DNA of 64,000 nt from Kineosporiaceae bacterium SCSIO 59966. Its GTDB lineage: Bacteria; Actinomycetota; Actinomycetes; Actinomycetales; SCSIO-59966. The position numbers were made by a program, and so were the translations under genes. The stretch's first letter is position 1. The number at the start of each line of letters is the position of its first letter. The notes beneath the pieces are model-generated. The model worked only from the letters and a program-made list of their open reading frames with translations, ran no database searches and was not told where the DNA came from. Positions 321 through 31,045 of this stretch are shown piece by piece. Where the stretch lies: positions 620,001-684,000 of the forward strand of contig CP052876.1 of the NCBI GenBank assembly GCA_020881835.1, read 5' to 3'.

Positions 321-389
321 GTGATCATGCAATCCCGCCACCCGTGATCATGCAATCCCGCCACCCGTGATCATGCAATCCCGCCACCC
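321..389 (+). repeat. Module A x3, head-to-tail (23-bp units)
   Basis: Three perfect, directly abutting copies (321-343, 344-366, 367-389) of a 23-bp sequence that begins GTGATCATGC, continues AATCCCG and ends CCACCC. They start 26 bp after the preceding stop codon and point in the direction of its transcription. This is the only place in the window where copies abut without a spacer. Confidence 0.95.
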
Positions 390-424: not shown

Positions 425-483
425 CAGAATGCTGGGTTGCTGGCGCGACACGCCGGCAGAACGGTGACGGACGCAGCATTCTG
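425..483 (+). repeat. Module B hairpin, 59 bp
   Basis: The outer arms are perfect inverted repeats, CAGAATGCTG (425-434) and CAGCATTCTG (474-483). Inside lies a second small hairpin, GGCG-CGACA-CGCC, followed by a locus-specific 13-nt segment (458-470). It lies 35 bp beyond the module A trio in the same orientation. The upstream reading frame of the following protease runs through it, so the protease start must lie further downstream. Nothing else is recognisable between 295 and 592. Confidence 0.9.
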
Positions 484-592: not shown

Positions 593-1996
593 ATGGCCGG
601 GAAGTCTGCCAAGCGGGGCGACGCGGCTCCGGCCGACGCCGGCGCCGCAGGTCCGGACGGACGAGGCCCCTTTCGTGCCGTGAGCCGCAGGTTGGCCCTG
701 GTCGCGGCGCTGCTGCTCGCCGCCCTGCCCGCGCCGTCCGCCGCCGCGGCCGACCTCGGCGACCCGCCGGGCACGTGGTGGCGGGACGCGATGGGGATCG
801 ACGAGGCGCACGCGCTGAGCACCGGGGAGGGGGTGACGGTGGCAGTCATCGACTCGGTCGTGGACTTGACCGTCCCGGAGCTCGCCGACGCCAACGTCGT
901 CCCCGCGTTCAACGCCTGCGCCGCCGACCCCGTCGGCGAGGGTCTGGGCTCCGGGTACGGCAGCCATCACGGCACGTCGATGGTGTCGATGGTGTCGCAG
1001 GCCGCGCCGGACGCCACCATCCGGGCGTACGCCTACACCGACACCGCCGACGCCGAGGAGCCGTGCGCCGGCCAGGGGTCGTCGCGCAGCATGTTGATCA
1101 ACGTGCGGGCCGCCTTCGAGCAGGCGGTTGCCGACGGCGTCGACATCATCAGCTTCTCAGCGACCCTCGGTGGCACTCTCGCCGACCTGCTCGAGGCGGC
1201 GGTCGACGCCGACACGGTCGTGGTCGTCTCCGTCGGCAACGGCCCGAGCGTGGGTCTGCCTGCGCTGCACAGCACCGACATCGGCGTCGTCTCGGTCACC
1301 GGGGTCGGCCCGGACGGCAGGCTCGGTGACTACGTGGTACCCGGCCGGCAGGTCGTCATCGCCGCGCCGGGTACCTCGCTGCGCACCGGCGGGTTCGTCG
1401 ACGGCCGCTGGCGCAGCGACGGGCTCACCAACGGGTCGAGTGCCGCGACGGCCCTGACCGCAGGTGGGCTTGCGCTGGTCCGTTCCCGCTACCCAGAGGC
1501 CACCGGCAACCAGATCGTCCAGCACCTCATCCGGCACACCACGCGCGACACGCTGGCCTTCGACGAGAGCTTCGGCTTCGGCTTCATCAACGTGCCGGAG
1601 ATGCTCGAGAACGACCCGACGCGCTGGGAGGACGTCAACCCGCTGACCGCTGTGTCCCGGCTCGCCATGATGGCCGAGGAGTACCCGGACGAGGCCGCGC
1701 TCGCCACCGCGGCTACCCCCGACAGCGGGGTGACGACGTCCGAGACGGCCGGGCCGACGGCGTCCGGGACGGCCGAGCCGACGGCGTCCGGCCCGGCCCC
1801 GGCGGACGACGGGTCGTCCGAGGCCACCGGCGCGGGCGCCGCCTCCGCTGGCCTGGGCACCTGGGGCGTCGTCGCGGTGACCGCCGCCGTCGTCGCCTCG
1901 GCGCTCGTGCTGGTCCTGCGCAGCCGACGGCTCCGGCGCTCGAAGCACCCGGACCGCCATGGATCACGACCGGCGCGGCGGACCAGCGGGTCGTAG
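593..1996 (+). CDS. Mycosin-like membrane-anchored subtilase (S8 family)
   Basis: A 467-residue serine protease predicted to be exported and tethered to the membrane. A signal or anchor segment (about residues 34-53, LALVAALLLAALPAP) precedes the S8 domain. The catalytic triad is visible: Asp87 in VAVIDS, His126 in HHGTSM and Ser283 in NGSSAAT, with the oxyanion Asn216 in SVGNG. A Ser/Thr/Pro/Gly-rich stretch and one C-terminal transmembrane helix (WGVVAVTAAVVASALVLVL) followed by basic residues give the layout of mycosins. Usual mycosins serve type VII secretion, but no ESX genes are nearby, so the substrate is unknown. The ATG at 593 is preferred (purine-rich GAAGAGGGGG upstream) because longer forms would translate module B. 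Confidence 0.82.
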   Translation: MAGKSAKRGDAAPADAGAAGPDGRGPFRAVSRRLALVAALLLAALPAPSAAAADLGDPPGTWWRDAMGIDEAHALSTGEGVTVAVIDSVVDLTVPELADANVVPAFNACAADPVGEGLGSGYGSHHGTSMVSMVSQAAPDATIRAYAYTDTADAEEPCAGQGSSRSMLINVRAAFEQAVADGVDIISFSATLGGTLADLLEAAVDADTVVVVSVGNGPSVGLPALHSTDIGVVSVTGVGPDGRLGDYVVPGRQVVIAAPGTSLRTGGFVDGRWRSDGLTNGSSAATALTAGGLALVRSRYPEATGNQIVQHLIRHTTRDTLAFDESFGFGFINVPEMLENDPTRWEDVNPLTAVSRLAMMAEEYPDEAALATAATPDSGVTTSETAGPTASGTAEPTASGPAPADDGSSEATGAGAASAGLGTWGVVAVTAAVVASALVLVLRSRRLRRSKHPDRHGSRPARRTSGS

Positions 1997-2013
1997 GGCC
2001 AGTGTGTGCTGCC

Positions 2014-2466
2014 TCAGGGCAGCATGTGGCCGATGTCGTCGATGACCGTTCCGTCCCGGCCGACGTAGGGAGCCAGCGGGGAGAACGACAGGTACGGCAT
2101 GTCCCCGCGCAGGAACGCCGCCTGGCCCCGCAGGGCGCCCGCGACCGGCGCGGCGACGGCGTCCAGGCCGTCGGCGAGCGCCTTGAGCTCCTCGGGCGTC
2201 CGGCTCCACCCGTCGGTGTCGGTGAGCCGGAGCAGGTCGATCTCGACCGCGGAGGCTCCGGACGAGACGCGCAGGGCGAGGCGCCGGGGCCGGCGCGGCT
2301 GCACCGTGACGTCGGCCGTCGCCAGCTCGACCCGGTGGGAGCGGAACCAGCGCCGCTGGCGCAGCTCGCCATCGACGAGCACCGCGCGTCCGCGCACCGG
2401 CCAGGCGAGCGCCGCGAACGGCCGCCGCCACCGTGCCCGCAGCCGCCGCAGCTCCATCCCGCTCAC
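2014..2466 (-). CDS. Conserved hypothetical protein, 150 aa
   Basis: A soluble protein with an arginine-rich N-terminus (ELRRLRARWRRPF) and a beta-rich middle (RGRAVLVDGELRQRRWFR, VELATADVTVQPRRPRRLALRV), ending in DGTVIDDIGHMLP. I do not recognise a family. The start is a GTG at 2466, with an ATG three codons later as an alternative. It reads in the same direction as the carboxylase gene upstream and is separated from it by a very strong hairpin (2517-2580), so it probably has its own promoter or depends on readthrough. The stop lies 18 bp from the convergent protease stop. Confidence 0.6.
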   Translation of the reverse strand: MSGMELRRLRARWRRPFAALAWPVRGRAVLVDGELRQRRWFRSHRVELATADVTVQPRRPRRLALRVSSGASAVEIDLLRLTDTDGWSRTPEELKALADGLDAVAAPVAGALRGQAAFLRGDMPYLSFSPLAPYVGRDGTVIDDIGHMLP

Positions 2467-2516
2467 GGTCCCACCATGCCCGTGCCGCCCGATCTCTCTG
2501 CCGTCCCGTCCTTGCC

Positions 2517-2580
2517 CGATCTCTGGAGGCTTTCCGGGGTCTCGCGGCCAGGCGAGAGCCCGGAAAGCCTCCAGAGATCG
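2517..2580 (-). terminator. 22-bp perfect inverted repeat downstream of the carboxylase alpha gene
   Basis: The arms 2517-2538 and 2559-2580 are exact reverse complements (outer CGATCTCTGGAGG, inner CTTTCCGGG). The 20-nt loop holds a further 5-bp stem (CTCGC/GCGAG). It begins 15 bp past the carboxylase stop. There is no T tract on either strand, so it fits the I-shaped terminators suggested for high-GC actinobacteria rather than a classical intrinsic terminator. Confidence 0.7.
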
Positions 2581-2594
2581 CCGGGTCAGGGGGC

Positions 2595-4397
2595 TCAGGC
2601 GTCCTTGATCTCGCAGAGGACGGCGCCGGCGGTGACGGTCGCGCCGACCTGAGCAGACAGGCCCGACACGACGCCCTCCTTGTGGGCGGTGATCGGCTGC
2701 TCCATCTTCATCGCCTCCAGGACGACGACCGTGTCGCCAACAGACACCGTCGCCCCGTCCTCGGCGGCGACCTTCACGATGGTGCCCTGCATCGGGGAGG
2801 TCAGTGCGTCACCGCCGGCCGCGGCGCCGCCACCGGCGGTCCGCTTGCGCCGCGGCGCCTTCGCCCTGGCCGCGCCAGCCCCACCGGCCGCACCAGCCGC
2901 ACCGCCGCCGCCCAGCCCGGCGAGCCCGGCGGGCAGCACGACCTCCAGCCGCTTGCCACCGACCTCGACGACGACCCGCTCCCGCTCACCCGGCCCCTCG
3001 TCGTCCGGGCCGGGACCGGTCCACGGCTCGATGGTGTTGTCGAACTCGGTCTCGATCCAGCGGGTGTGCACGGTGAACGGCTCGTCCCCGGCGGGCGCGA
3101 ACGCGGGGTCCTGCACGACCGCGCGGTGGAACGGCAGCACCGTCGGCATCCCCTCGACGACGAACTCGGCGAGGGCCCGGCGGGAGCGCTCGAGCGCCTG
3201 GCGGCGGGTGGCGCCGGTGACGATCAGCTTGGCGAGCATGGAGTCGAAGGCGCCCGGGACGACGTCCCCGGCCCGCACCCCGGAGTCCAGCCGGACGCCG
3301 GGACCGCTCGGCGGCTCGAAGCGAGCCACGGTGCCGGGGGCTGGCAGGAAGTTGCGCCCGGCGTCCTCGCCGTTGATGCGGAACTCGATGGCGTGCCCGC
3401 GGATCTCGGGGTCGTCGTAGCCGAGCTCCTCGCCGGCGGCGACCCGCAGCTGCTCGCGGACCAGGTCGATGCCGGTGACCTCCTCGGAGACCGGGTGCTC
3501 CACCTGCAGACGGGTGTTGACCTCGAGGAACGAGATCGTGCCGTCCTGTCCGACGAGAAACTCGCAGGTGCCCGCCCCGACGTAGCCGGCCTCGCGCAGG
3601 ATCGCCTTGGACGCCCGGTACAGCTCGGCGACCTGCTCTGGCGACAGGAACGGCGCGGGCGCCTCCTCGACGAGCTTCTGGTGCCGGCGCTGCAGCGAGC
3701 AGTCGCGGGTGGAGACGACGACGACGTTGCCGTGGGAGTCGGCCAGGCACTGGGTCTCGACGTGCCGCGGCTTGTCGAGGTACTTCTCCACGAAGCACTC
3801 CCCGCGGCCGAACGCCGCAACCGCCTCGCGCACCGCGGAGTCGTACAGCTCGGCGACCTCCTCGCGCGCCCGGACGACCTTGAGCCCGCGGCCGCCGCCG
3901 CCGTACGCGGCCTTGATGGCGATCGGCAGCCCGTGCTCGTCGGCGAACGCCTGCACCTCCTCGGCGCCGGAGACCGGGTCCGTGGTGCCGGCCACCAGCG
4001 GGGCACCGACCCGCTCGGCGATGTGCCGGGCCTTGACCTTGTCGCCGAGGGCGTCGATCGCGGACGGCGGCGGGCCGATCCAGGCCAGTCCGGCGTCCAG
4101 CACGGCCTGGGCGAAGTGGGCGTTCTCGGCGAGGAACCCGTACCCGGGGTGCACCGCGTCGGCGCCGGAGCGGCGCGCGGCGTCCAGCAGCTTGTCGATG
4201 ACGAGGTAGGAGTCGACGGGGGTGGAGCCGCCGAGCGCGTACGCCTCGTCGGCGAGGGTGACGTGCAGGGCTTCGCGGTCGGGGTCGGCGTAGACGGCCA
4301 CCGACGCGATCCCGGAGTCCCGGCAGGCCCGGGCGATCCGGACGGCGATCTCGCCGCGGTTGGCGATGAGCACCTTGGTGATGGCTCGGTCTGGCAC
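2595..4397 (-). CDS. Acyl-CoA carboxylase alpha subunit (biotin carboxylase + BCCP)
   Basis: A 600-residue protein that carboxylates its own biotin using ATP and bicarbonate, for transfer to acyl-CoA by a beta subunit. In order it shows a biotin-carboxylase N-domain ([16 protein letters not shown]), a Gly-rich ATP-grasp loop ([12 protein letters not shown]), the catalytic stretch [18 protein letters not shown], a Gly/Ala-rich linker and a biotinyl domain with EAMKMEQP, whose Lys564 would carry biotin. The GTG at 4397 with GAGGGGAC upstream is preferred to the in-frame start 34 codons earlier, because homology begins there. It lies 98 bp downstream of the MerR gene on the same strand. It could serve the beta subunit at 6356 (methylcrotonyl-type), the pccB product, or both. 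Confidence 0.93.
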
Positions 4398-9386: not shown

Positions 9387-9517
9387 GTGATCATGCAATC
9401 CCGCCACCCTGCCAGGCCGCCGCTCGCCCGCCATCGGTGATCATGCAATCCCGCCACCCTGCCAGGCCGCCGCTCGCCGCCCGCCCCCTCATCGGTGATC
9501 ATGCAATTCCGCCACCC
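9387..9517 (+). repeat. Module A x3 in a 60/48-bp spaced array
   Basis: Copies lie at 9387-9409, 9447-9469 and 9495-9517; the last has one T substitution. The first two share about 37 bp of spacer, giving a 60-bp tandem unit. Unlike most loci, this array lies upstream of a gene (the antiporter start is at 9224) and not at the 3' end of one. The rest of 9225-9683 shows no gene. Confidence 0.92.
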
Positions 9518-9683: not shown

Positions 9684-9786
9684 CAGAATGCTGGATTCAC
9701 CGCAACTTTCACGGCGTGTCGCGCCGACAACCCAGCATCCTGCGAGCGGGCGGCAGGGTGGCAGGGTGGCGGGATTGCATGATCAC
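9684..9786 (-). repeat. Module B + module A pair at the 3' end of maf
   Basis: Module B occupies 9684-9742 (arms CAGAATGCTG and CAGCATCCTG, one mismatch) and module A occupies 9764-9786, both on the minus strand. The TGA inside module A is the stop codon of maf, so the last residues of that protein lie directly against the repeat. Confidence 0.92.
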
Positions 9787-13405: not shown

Positions 13406-13509
13406 CAGAATGCTGCGTTCGGAACATCTTTGCCGGCGTGTCGCGCCACCAACCCAGCATTCTGCGAGCGTGGGCTGGGTCGTGCGGGGTGGCGGGATTG
13501 CATGATCAC
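13406..13509 (-). repeat. Module B + module A pair between pccB and accE
   Basis: Module B lies at 13406-13464 (perfect 10-bp outer arms) and module A at 13487-13509. Two further GACTGATCA motifs with T-rich flanks follow at 13520-13556. In the direction of pccB transcription the order is A then B, starting about 60 bp after the stop. Confidence 0.92.
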
Positions 13510-21104: not shown

Positions 21105-21258
21105 GTGATCATGCAATCCCGCCACCCTCTGCCCCTCCCGCCTGCCCGCAGAATGCTGGGTTGTTGGCGCAACACGCCGGCATGGGGGCCCAAAATCCAG
21201 CATTTTGCACGCCCCGGACGCCCCAAACCCACCCCGTGATCATGCAATCCCGCCACCC
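21105..21258 (+). repeat. Module A-B-A composite (one 131-bp unit plus terminal A)
   Basis: A at 21105-21127, B at 21149-21207 and A at 21236-21258. The A-to-A distance is 131 bp. B carries the same 13-nt variable segment as the array at 26595-27040, which has the opposite orientation. It lies at the 3' end of the histidine kinase gene. Confidence 0.93.
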
Positions 21259-21393
21259 GCTTCATGGCTCTGGCGGGCCACTCCGGGGATGAGAGTGGTC
21301 GCGGCGCGCCACGAACCCAGGGACGTTCGAGCGGGCGGTGGGAGCCGGCCGGCCTGATTGCATGCAGCCCGCATCGGGTATAGGCCTCCACCA

Positions 21394-21448
21394 CAGAATG
21401 CTGCGTTCCGCACAGCCCGGCGTGTCGAGCCACCAACCCAGCACTCTG
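21394..21448 (-). repeat. Shortened module B (55 bp) next to the IS element
   Basis: Arms are CAGAATGCTG and CAGCACTCTG, with the internal conserved GGCGTGTC...CCACC stretch and a variable segment about 4 nt shorter than in other copies. A module A would be expected about 22 bp further on. That is where the predicted left end of the IS element lies, and the next module A is on the far side of the IS. Confidence 0.8.
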
Positions 21449-21533: not shown

Positions 21534-21818
21534 ATGTCTAAGTATCGGAAGTTCACTCAGGAATACCGTGAAGAGGCCGTCAGGTTGGTGATCGAGTCGA
21601 GCCGGCCGATCGCCGAGGTGGCCCGGGAGCTGGGCATCAACGAGGGCACCCTTGGGAACTGGTGCAACAAGTACCGGCGGGAGCACCCGGTCAGTGAGGA
21701 GTTGAACCTGCCCGAGCGGAGCCGGTTACGGGAGCTGGAGCGGGAGAACCGTGAGCTCAGGTTGCAGGCGGAGTTCCTAAAAAAAGCAGCAGCCTTCTTC
21801 GCCAGGGAGCAGCAGTGA
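21534..21818 (+). CDS. IS3-family transposase OrfA
   Basis: A 94-residue DNA-binding subunit. The helix-turn-helix reads YREEAVRLVIESSRPIAEVARELGINEGTLGNW. A leucine-zipper-like coiled coil follows (ERSRLRELERENRELRLQAEFLKKAAAFF), as in the IS3 family. The ATG at 21534 precedes SKYRKFTQE. The 3' end overlaps OrfB by 4 bp, and a run of seven A residues upstream of the stop allows fusion to OrfB by -1 frameshifting. Confidence 0.93.
   Translation: MSKYRKFTQEYREEAVRLVIESSRPIAEVARELGINEGTLGNWCNKYRREHPVSEELNLPERSRLRELERENRELRLQAEFLKKAAAFFAREQQ
21779..21786 (+). other. Poly-A -1 frameshift site in the IS3 element
   Basis: Seven consecutive A residues followed by G, with OrfA codons AAA AAA GCA. 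The -1 frame is open from here through the OrfB start, so slippage would give an OrfAB fusion, the usual active IS3 transposase. Confidence 0.75.
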
Positions 21819-22726
21819 GCGACAAGTACGCGCTCATTGCCGCGGAGAAGGCCGACCGCAGGAGCCCGTTCAGCGTGGTGCTCATGTGCACGGTGCTGGC
21901 GGTGTCGACCTCGGCGTTCTACGACTGGTTGACCGGGCAGCCCAGCGCGCGGCAGGTGCGGCGAGCCAAGATCGGGGTGCACGTGCAGGCCGCGTTCGCC
22001 GCCGGCCGCGGCACCTACGGGGTGCGCCGGGTGCACGCGGTGCTCGGGCGCAGCGACGACGCCGACGTGGCGGGCGCGTCGGTGCGGATCGTGCGAGACA
22101 TCATGCAGGAGAAGGGGCTTCGCGCGTGCCAGCCGCGGGCCTACCGGACCACCACGGTGCGTGACCCCGGCACCGAACCCGTCATCGCCGACCACGTCGG
22201 CCGGGACTTCACCGCCACCGCGCCCGGCCACAAGCTCGTCGGCGACATCACGTACGTGCCCACCTGGCAGGGCTGGCTGTACCTGGCGACCGTGATCGAC
22301 TGCCACACCAAGGCCGTCGTGGGGTGGTCGATGGCCGACCACATGCGCACCGACCTGGTCTGCGACGCGATCACGATGGCCACGCGCAACGTCCCCCTCG
22401 CCGCCGGCGCGGTATTTCACTCGGACCGCGGCAGTCAATACACCAGCGCCCAATTCGCCCGCCACCTCGCCGAGCACGGGCTCACCGGTTCGATGGGAAG
22501 AACCGGGATCTGCTGGGACAATGCCATGGCCGAATCCTTTTTCGGGGCGTTGAAGAACGAGCTCGTGTACCGCACCGTCTTCCCCACCCGAGACAAGGCC
22601 CGCCAGGCCATTGCAGAATACATCGAAGTGTTCTACAATCGGCAACGTCTCCACTCGGCACTCGGCTACAAGACCCCGCTCGAGGTCGCCAACGAGTACC
22701 ACCAACACGCCACACTTGCCGCCTGA
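21815..22726 (+). CDS. IS3-family transposase OrfB (DDE integrase core)
   Basis: A 303-residue catalytic subunit. An HTH_21-like region (GRGTYGVRRVHAVLGR) precedes the rve core, with the triad visible as Asp in GDITYVPTWQGWLYLATVIDCHTKAVVGWS, Asp in VFHSDRGSQYTSAQF and Glu in CWDNAMAESFFGALKNELV. The end, YIEVFYNRQRLHSALGYKTPLEV, is typical. The frame is intact, so the element may be functional. The GTG at 21815 overlaps the OrfA stop. Confidence 0.95.
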   Translation: MSDKYALIAAEKADRRSPFSVVLMCTVLAVSTSAFYDWLTGQPSARQVRRAKIGVHVQAAFAAGRGTYGVRRVHAVLGRSDDADVAGASVRIVRDIMQEKGLRACQPRAYRTTTVRDPGTEPVIADHVGRDFTATAPGHKLVGDITYVPTWQGWLYLATVIDCHTKAVVGWSMADHMRTDLVCDAITMATRNVPLAAGAVFHSDRGSQYTSAQFARHLAEHGLTGSMGRTGICWDNAMAESFFGALKNELVYRTVFPTRDKARQAIAEYIEVFYNRQRLHSALGYKTPLEVANEYHQHATLAA

Positions 22727-22791: not shown

Positions 22792-22873
22792 GGGTGGCGG
22801 GATTGCATGATCACGAAGAGGGTTTTCTTGACTAACCACGGGGACGGTATGGGTGGCGGGATTGCATGATCAC
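22792..22873 (-). repeat. Module A x2 (59 bp apart)
   Basis: Copies lie at 22792-22814 and 22851-22873 on the minus strand. The second supplies the stop codon that truncates the HEPN gene fragment. A T-rich TTGACTAACCAC stretch lies between them, resembling the GACTGATCAC motif that follows module A elsewhere. Confidence 0.9.
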
Positions 22874-30636: not shown

Positions 30637-31045
30637 GGGTGGCGGGATTGCATGATCACCAAGTGGGGGAGCGCGCCGCCACCACAGAATGCTGCGTTCA
30701 GCACGGCTTGGCCGGCGTGTCGCGCCAACAACCCAGCATTCTGCGAGCTGGCCCTGCGCACCCGAGGGTGGCGGGATTGCATGATCACCGAGTGGGGGAG
30801 CGCGCCGCCACCGCAGAATGCTGCGCTCAGCACGGCTTGGCCGGCGTGTCGCGCCAACAACCCAGCATTCTGCGAGCTGGCCCTGCGCGCCCGAGGGTGG
30901 CGGGATTGCATGATCACCGAGTGGAGGAGCGCGCCGCCACCACAGAATGCTGCGTTCAGCACGGCTTGGCCGGCATGTCGCGCCAACAACCCAGCATTCT
31001 GCGAGCTGGCCGGCCCGCCAGAGGGTGGCGGGATTGCATGATCAC
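30637..31045 (-). repeat. Tandem array of 129-bp A-B units (A4 B3)
   Basis: Module A copies lie at 30637, 30766, 30895 and 31023, and module B at 30685, 30814 and 30943. The period is 129 bp (128 for the last). All three B copies share one 13-nt variable segment, different from that of the 131-bp array. It ends 23 bp from the stop of the LCP gene and points along its transcription. 30544-31067 has no gene. Confidence 0.95.

What the first reader, a model, noticed from the sequence alone, without database searches (positions are those of the whole stretch)
425..483. Module B has conserved hairpin arms around a locus-specific 13-nt segment
Aligning the full-length B copies in one orientation, nucleotides 1-33 (outer arm, GGTTG, inner hairpin) and 47-59 (closing arm) are nearly invariant, while 34-46 differs completely between loci: AGAACGGTGACGG here, AAAGATGTTCCGA at 13406, CAAGCCGTGCTGA at 30685, ATGGGGGCCCAAA at 21149. 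Within one tandem array it is identical. A constant scaffold with a variable insert of fixed length could be a structured RNA with a specificity segment, or a cassette acquired at a hairpin.
Basis: partly seen in the sequence, partly recalled or inferred. Interest (0 to 1): 0.72.

Follow-up and report, generated by a model that had tools for sequence, protein, structure and literature searches.

The report
Hairpin repeats partnered with a nuclease
The "module B" hairpin is one of about 117 copies of a repeated DNA element scattered between genes of this bacterium, and two of those copies bracket a gene for a DNA-cutting enzyme; other dispersed repeats bracket related enzyme genes in the same way here and in 12 other genera, which suggests an overlooked class of enzyme-and-repeat partnership.

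Summary
The hairpin architecture is real: B occurs about 117 times in this 3.1-Mb actinobacterial chromosome. The "locus-specific 13-mer" is not. Over 110 copies it is a drifting version of one ancestral sequence, [CA]AAGC[TC]G[TC]GC[CT]GA, and half of it pairs with the inner 5' arm. It is therefore neither a specificity segment nor an acquired insert. B is a 59-nt imperfect hairpin found almost only between genes. Related hairpins sharing a CGACACGCC core occur in other genera of the order, and their stems covary strongly.

The main result lies outside the given coordinates. Two inward-facing B copies bracket a gene for an AbiEi-like/Vsr-like (DUF559/MTES_1575-type, E-D-x-H-D motif) nuclease. 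The genome's other two detected nuclease genes are bracketed by its other dispersed repeats: module A (421 copies) and a palindrome C that also lies at window 2517-2580. Of 43 such nuclease genes examined in 16 genomes, 35 have matching repeats on both sides, against 2 of 67 control genes. Repeat type follows nuclease phylogeny.

Best reading: B is the non-autonomous repeat of a REP/RAYT-like system in which a Vsr-like nuclease replaces the tyrosine transposase. The association is shown; cleavage and mobilisation are inferred.

The parts
425..483 (+). B hairpin (the finding): outer stem 425-434/474-483, extended by 436-438/470-472; inner hairpin 441-445/451-455, or alternative inner stem 440-446/464-470; conserved core GCGACACGCC
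458..470 (+). the '13-mer' AGAACGGTGACGG: variable 3' half of the inner stem plus apical loop; same sequence in the B copy at genome 356.7 kb
321..389 (+). three tandem A repeats (GTGATCATGCAATCCCGCCAC), 5' of B in the same orientation; A has 421 copies genome-wide
2517..2580 (.). C palindrome (CGATCTCTGGAGGCTTTCCGGGG...CGGAAAGCCTCCAGAGATCG), a third dispersed hairpin family, about 16 copies genome-wide; two copies bracket nuclease gene 3 outside the window
9684..9742 (-). B copy, diverged; A copies at 9387-9517 (+) and 9764-9786 (-) face it
13406..13464 (-). B copy with A at 13487-13509 (-)
21149..21207 (+). B copy in an A-B-A unit (21105-21258) that matches the 26.6-kb array; homology begins and ends at A
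21394..21448 (-). B copy with 4 nt missing from the variable segment
26595..27040 (-). tandem A-B array, three B copies (26646, 26777, 26908), period 131 nt
30637..31045 (-). tandem A-B array, three B copies (30685, 30814, 30943), period 129 nt

Best explanation
B is the dispersed, non-autonomous repeat of a REP-like system. The full-length unit in this genome lies outside the window at G000:C1:1,248,428-1,249,651: B> - gene for a nuclease of about 322 aa - <B. The protein carries the invariant E-D-E-H-D constellation of Vsr/EDxHD nucleases at its C terminus; its relatives have an AbiEi-like N-terminal domain. Shown: each of the three such nuclease genes detected in the genome is bracketed by a different dispersed repeat family (B, A, C); the same bracketing is common in related genomes, and repeat type follows nuclease phylogeny. 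Inferred: the N-terminal domain recognises the cognate repeat, the nuclease nicks or cuts at it as a folded single strand or cruciform, and repair copies repeat cassettes (A-B-A, B arrays) into other intergenic sites. The variable 13-mer is the least constrained part of the hairpin: an inner-stem strand plus loop that drifts while mostly keeping its pairing.
For: Dispersal: 117 B and 421 A copies; 108 of 110 B copies classed as intergenic, 51 of them between convergent genes. Structure: G-T cells exceed A-C cells in the outer helix 249 to 31, so one strand is the folded one; cross-genus covariation is strong; at one orthologous locus in two species the stem changed from AGTTC/GAACT to AGCTC/GAGCT. 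Partnership: B> nuclease <B in this genome and in G132; nuclease 2 lies between four A> and two <A; nuclease 3 lies between two of about 16 C hairpins. 35 of 43 homologous genes have matching flanking repeats at E <= 1e-5 against 2 of 67 control genes; 25 of 43 against 1 of 67 at 1e-12. Second example: the hairpin bracketing the G230 and G272 nuclease is dispersed in about 13 copies in each and absent from G132 and G222. Co-evolution: the B-core label needs 4 changes on the nuclease tree against 8.0 shuffled, 1 of 500 as low; nucleases bracketed by short inward tandem repeats (A-type) fall in one clade, support 100/97. Flanking repeats match between paralogs of one genome in only 7 of 29 pairs, the strongest of them close sister genes. 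Nuclease: E, R, D, E, G and D are invariant in 32 sequences, H in 88%; dN/dS is 0.28 between two species. Copying: A-B-A homology between 21.1 and 26.6 kb starts and stops at A.
Against: No movement was observed and no empty site could be compared, because no same-family genome is held. In G230 and G272 the nuclease locus is orthologous over its whole length, so that unit is inherited vertically at present. 8 of 43 homologs lack a matching pair. B-type hairpins arise on 4 branches of the nuclease tree, so pairing is not one-to-one. Assignment of the B-bracketed protein to DUF559 is weak: 18.7 bits against a cut-off of 20.6. Some flank matches may reflect GC-rich composition, since 24 of 67 controls pass at the looser E <= 1e-3. 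The three discovery loci are included in the 43.
Confidence: 0.72

Rival explanations
1. B is a cis-acting RNA structure in 3' untranslated regions, for example a bidirectional terminator or mRNA 3'-end protector, and has no partner enzyme.
For: 51 of 108 classed copies lie between convergent gene ends. G-U-compatible changes on one strand fit RNA folding. Stems are stable and covary.
Against: In tandem gene contexts B is sense 23 times and antisense 24 times. No T-run follows it. In G132, B copies sit next to canonical terminator-like hairpins. Terminators need no shared stem sequence, yet stems are nearly identical within a genome and differ between genera. It does not explain the nuclease brackets.
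Confidence: 0.12
2. The repeats are older host sequences, and nuclease genes merely insert into or next to repeat arrays, as some insertion sequences do with REPs.
For: Some insertion sequences target REP elements (PMC1525189). Brackets contain whole repeats, as insertion into an array would give; G222 has an array around its gene.
Against: Each nuclease has its own repeat: three of three in this genome, with cross-matches between paralogs in 7 of 29 pairs, the strongest of them close sisters. Repeat type follows the nuclease tree. Brackets are often a single repeat on each side, not split arrays.
Confidence: 0.13
3. One reading: a structured RNA or cassette hairpin whose 13-nt segment encodes locus-specific information, such as guide-like or attC-like content.
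For: The segment is the most variable part, and four window loci look unrelated.
Against: A genome-wide consensus exists. Half of the segment pairs inside the hairpin. No Rfam match in the window. Arrays of period 129-131 nt leave no room for cassette genes. No close match to B in phages, plasmids or viral contigs.
Confidence: 0.03

Closest known systems
REP / REPIN elements with RAYT tyrosine transposases (PMC2817692, PMC3116915, PMC3733652)
   Same: Many extragenic hairpins per genome, enriched near convergent gene ends; mosaic clusters of inward-facing units; one enzyme gene per repeat family bracketed by two copies, often inverted; enzyme and repeat co-diverge.
   Different: No Y1/HUH transposase in this genome or in the B-bearing genomes checked. 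The enzyme is a Vsr-like nuclease. Hairpins are 59-64 nt rather than 20-40. No GTAG or CGTC tag; A-type units are not hairpins.
Vsr-like / EDxHD homing endonucleases (I-Bth0305I, PDB 3r3p)
   Same: Same order of invariant residues E-D-x-H-D; 3r3p is the only PDB chain matched by the G132 protein, although not significantly (E = 2.5). Long DNA targets are described for the family (PMC3943268).
   Different: Not in an intron or intein; bracketed by dispersed repeats; AbiEi-like N-terminal domain in some members; homing not shown.
AbiE toxin-antitoxin, AbiEi component
   Same: N-terminal region of the A-associated nuclease matches AbiEi (6.9e-12; PADLOC 2.4e-12).
   Different: Fused to a nuclease; the bracketed unit holds a single gene, with no AbiEii partner between the repeats.

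Membership tests
REP/RAYT system | partner enzyme is a Y1/HUH (PF01797) transposase | tested here: not met
   none in own genome; none in G015, G034, G072, G132, G170 or G184
REP/RAYT system | enzyme gene bracketed by two copies of the repeat that is dispersed in the genome | tested here: met
   3 of 3 detected nuclease genes in own genome; 35 of 43 overall
REP/RAYT system | about 100 or more extragenic palindromic copies | tested here: met
   117 B copies; 108 of 110 classed as intergenic
REP/RAYT system | unpaired GTAG or CGTC tag at one end, hairpin 20-40 bp | tested here: not met
   column profile of 110 copies: 59-nt element, no such tag
REP/RAYT system | enzyme-dependent cleavage and dissemination | not testable with these tools
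   needs biochemistry or experimental evolution
EDxHD / Vsr-like homing endonuclease | E-D-x-H-D catalytic residues | tested here: met
   E, D, E, D 100%, H 88% in 32 sequences
EDxHD / Vsr-like homing endonuclease | detectable homology or shared fold with a solved member | tested here: inconclusive
   3r3p at E = 0.43 and 2.5; 3hrl at 0.0082; no structure prediction made
EDxHD / Vsr-like homing endonuclease | cuts allele lacking the element, which is then copied in | not testable with these tools
   no same-genus genome to compare
AbiE toxin-antitoxin | adjacent AbiEii nucleotidyltransferase toxin | tested here: not met
   one gene between the repeats in own genome and G132; no wider neighbourhood search
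Integron attC array | attC sites separated by cassette genes | tested here: not met
   129-131 nt period arrays with no room for genes
Curated RNA families (Rfam 15) | match above gathering score | tested here: not met
   0 matches in the 64-kb window
IS110-type bridge RNA system | DEDD recombinase with a bispecific RNA | not tested
   no search for DEDD recombinases was made

The most novel reading that the evidence does not exclude
Hairpin and inward-tandem repeats of actinobacterial intergenic regions are non-autonomous members of an undescribed class of transposable or homing element. In this class a fused AbiEi-like DNA-binding domain and Vsr/EDxHD-type nuclease recognises and spreads its cognate repeat, independently of HUH or DDE transposases, giving rise to several REP-like families per genome.
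Probability: 0.5. Interest if true: 0.9.

Novelty: new variant of a known kind. Interest (0 to 1): 0.8.

Why it matters
REP-like repeats without a RAYT lack a known partner enzyme; PMC3733652 says so of the CGTC class. This links dispersed palindromic repeats of Actinobacteria to a specific and testable enzyme family, so far named only DUF559 or MTES_1575. It also suggests that the repeat-plus-tamed-enzyme arrangement evolved at least twice from unrelated enzymes. It gives direct experiments: cognate binding and cutting among three enzyme-repeat pairs inside one genome.

Tried and rejected
(1) Locus-specific 13-mer: rejected by the genome-wide consensus.
(2) Known RNA family: no Rfam hit.
(3) RAYT/HUH partner: absent.
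(4) Phage, plasmid or viral origin: no match for B in the phage, plasmid or viral collections. Exact cores were not found in other named genomes apart from one match to a looser pattern in an Acidobacteria MAG, probably chance.
(5) Sense-strand terminator: orientation relative to transcription is random in tandem contexts, 23 against 24.
(6) Replication-strand bias: 68 copies run against the fork and 42 with it, oriC near 1.6 kb. This is weak, partly array copies, and opposite to what I would expect for IS200/IS605-like lagging-template transposition.
(7) Within-genome covariation of the two-helix structure is not above shuffles (47 and 62 of 500) because the arms hardly vary; only the cross-genus alignment is informative.
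(8) GTTG/CRAC pseudoknot: 96% paired, but it cannot be separated from sequence conservation.
(9) Viral-contig search with the nuclease alignment failed, being too divergent for seeds.
(11) Structure prediction was not attempted: its stated rule does not list loci obtained through the genome search.
(12) A first dN/dS run used a wrong reading frame and was discarded; one search is the corrected one. Three early translations were out of frame and were not used.

Full report
Setting. The window is bases 620,001-684,000 of a single-contig 3,095,448-bp genome with dnaA at its start. No genome of the same family or genus is held; relatives found are of the same order. The organism could not be named, because the exact-pattern scans of the named genome collection returned no hit in it.

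The observation. B at 425-483 and the other window copies are as described. Genome-wide, 117 places match the first 31 nt with at most 3 mismatches and none matches the reversed pattern. I fetched stretches around the hits and anchored 110 copies. The "13-mer" has a consensus, [CA]AAGC[TC]G[TC]GC[CT]GA, with 0.3-1.45 bits per column, against 1.2-2.0 in the outer arms. Only 17 of 110 copies differ from CAAGCTGTGCCGA at 7 or more of 13 positions. Length is nearly but not strictly fixed (4 nt missing in the copy at 21394-21448).

Structure. Positions 0-9 pair with 49-58 in 90-99% of copies, and 11-13 pair with 45-47 in 89-98%, the latter largely through G-T as well as Watson-Crick cells. In the outer helix G-T cells outnumber A-C cells 249 to 31, so the strand written here is the one that folds, as RNA or single-stranded DNA. 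The variable segment is not free. Pairing of 15-21 with 39-45 averages 5.27 of 7 pairs, against 2.87 when each 13-mer is shuffled and 3.8 or less in eight other registers. Within this genome the arms are too invariant for covariation to speak. A covariance model from 44 copies found related hairpins in other genera. In an alignment of 28 sequences from this and five other genera, 14 of 16 outer pairs have changes on both sides: 66 cells against 22.9 +/- 4.7, 0 of 500 shuffles, and far below that in slid controls. A second model found hits in 46 of 396 genomes of the order, 16 of them with five or more hits, with patchy distribution inside genera. The shared part is the loop strand CGACACGCC; stem sequence is genome-specific. 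Between two species with about 95% identical flanks, one orthologous hairpin changed from AGTTC/GAACT to AGCTC/GAGCT, a compensatory change.

Arrangement. A (GTGATCATGCAATCCCGCCAC) has 421 copies. A almost always points inward, A> ... B ... <A, with B co-oriented with its nearest A. Of 110 B copies, 100 have A within 500 nt. One copy lies inside a predicted gene and one has an undetermined neighbour. The other 108 are intergenic: 51 convergent, 47 tandem (23 sense, 24 antisense) and 10 divergent. The A-B-A unit at 21.1 kb and the array at 26.6 kb are homologous exactly from A to A, so repeats move or convert as A-bounded cassettes.

The partner gene. No Y1 transposase exists in this genome or in the B-bearing relatives checked. 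In G132 and G222, genes next to B pairs or arrays encode related proteins with a DUF559 or MTES_1575 C-terminal domain, called a Vsr-family REase in PMC3710099. The same arrangement is present in this genome: B at L102 1529-1587 (+), a gene at 1614-2582 (-), B at 2694-2752 (-). A profile of the three proteins finds three homologs here and 3-10 in each of 15 other genomes. The other two genes here are bracketed by A, four copies upstream and two inverted downstream, and by palindrome C. C is a family of about 16 copies, one of which is at window 2517-2580. Three nuclease genes therefore match three dispersed repeat families.

Control. For 43 homologous genes the 500-bp flanks were compared with each other. 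35 share a repeat at E <= 1e-5 and 25 at 1e-12. For 67 ordinary genes in eight stretches of this genome and six of other genomes the numbers are 2 and 1. Three of the 43 are the discovery cases. Many flanking repeats are near-perfect hairpins of about 60 nt. The hairpin bracketing the G230 and G272 nuclease is itself dispersed, about 13 copies each, and absent from two other genera. On a tree of 35 nucleases the B-core label needs 4 changes against 8.0 in shuffles (1 of 500 as low), and genes bracketed by short inward tandem repeats, the A-type, form one clade with support 100/97. Up and down flanks match within a gene, but flanks of different paralogs in one genome match in only 7 of 29 pairs, the strongest of them close sisters. 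The within-gene set in that call was chosen mostly from positives, so only the cross comparison is informative.

The enzyme. In 32 sequences E, R, D, E, G and D are invariant and H is 88% conserved, in the order E-D-E-H-D; this fits the EDxHD homing-endonuclease class discussed in PMC3943268. PDB matches are weak: 3hrl (0.0082), PvuRts1I (0.03) and 3r3p, the I-Bth0305I mobile-intron protein (0.43; 2.5 in a single-sequence search). The A-associated protein also matches AbiEi (6.9e-12). dN/dS is 0.28 between G230 and G272, so the gene is kept for function, and its locus is orthologous in both.

How it most likely works. The closest functional analogue is RAYT/REP. RAYT genes are reported to be always flanked by two inverted REPs, and RAYT and REP trees agree (PMC2817692). 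By analogy, the DNA-binding part would recognise the cognate repeat and the nuclease would nick or cut it while folded; repair would then copy repeats elsewhere, with intergenic convergent sites tolerated. The association is shown; recognition, cutting and spread are inferred. A rival in which the repeats are only preferred landing sites for the genes is not excluded, but it explains one-repeat-per-enzyme specificity poorly.

Novelty. No paper in the held library was found that links DUF559 or MTES_1575 nucleases to dispersed repeats. That library is open-access only, so prior description elsewhere cannot be ruled out.

Noticed in passing
window 2517-2580: 64-nt palindrome C, third dispersed hairpin family (about 16 copies), whose cognate nuclease gene is at genome 551,843-552,841.
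   Followed up: yes
window 21588-22726: Two overlapping ORFs that look like IS3-family orfA/orfB (by inspection only) lie between B/A copies at 21149-21448 and A copies at 22792-22873, so an insertion sequence appears to have landed in a repeat cluster.
   Followed up: no
L101 (genome 1,218,883-1,218,941): One B copy is an almost perfect palindrome including the loop (MFE -49 kcal/mol), so it reads as B on both strands.
   Followed up: partly
L223 and L224 (G132): Tandem B arrays of 88-nt period sit just beyond the terminator of 5S rRNA genes (identified by inspection), with 3 copies at one locus and 2 at the other.
   Followed up: partly
L344:15781-17687 (G104): A control gene (membrane protein of about 300 aa, not a nuclease) is flanked by two 86%-identical repeats of 74 nt (TGACCGTATCGACACGGCTCCGTCAGTC...), unexplained.
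   Followed up: no
L188-L197 (G015): A-like repeats GTGATCATGG[AG]ATCCCGCCAC in intergenic arrays; the A-type nuclease of G015 (L319) is bracketed by a diverged form, GTGATCTTGCACTTCTGCAG, and is the closest relative of the A-bracketed nuclease here.
   Followed up: partly
genome-wide: B copies run against the replication fork 68 times and with it 42 times; weak and partly due to array copies.
   Followed up: partly
window 692-1996: ORF resembling a secreted, membrane-anchored subtilisin-like serine protease directly downstream of the B at 425 (by inspection only).
   Followed up: no
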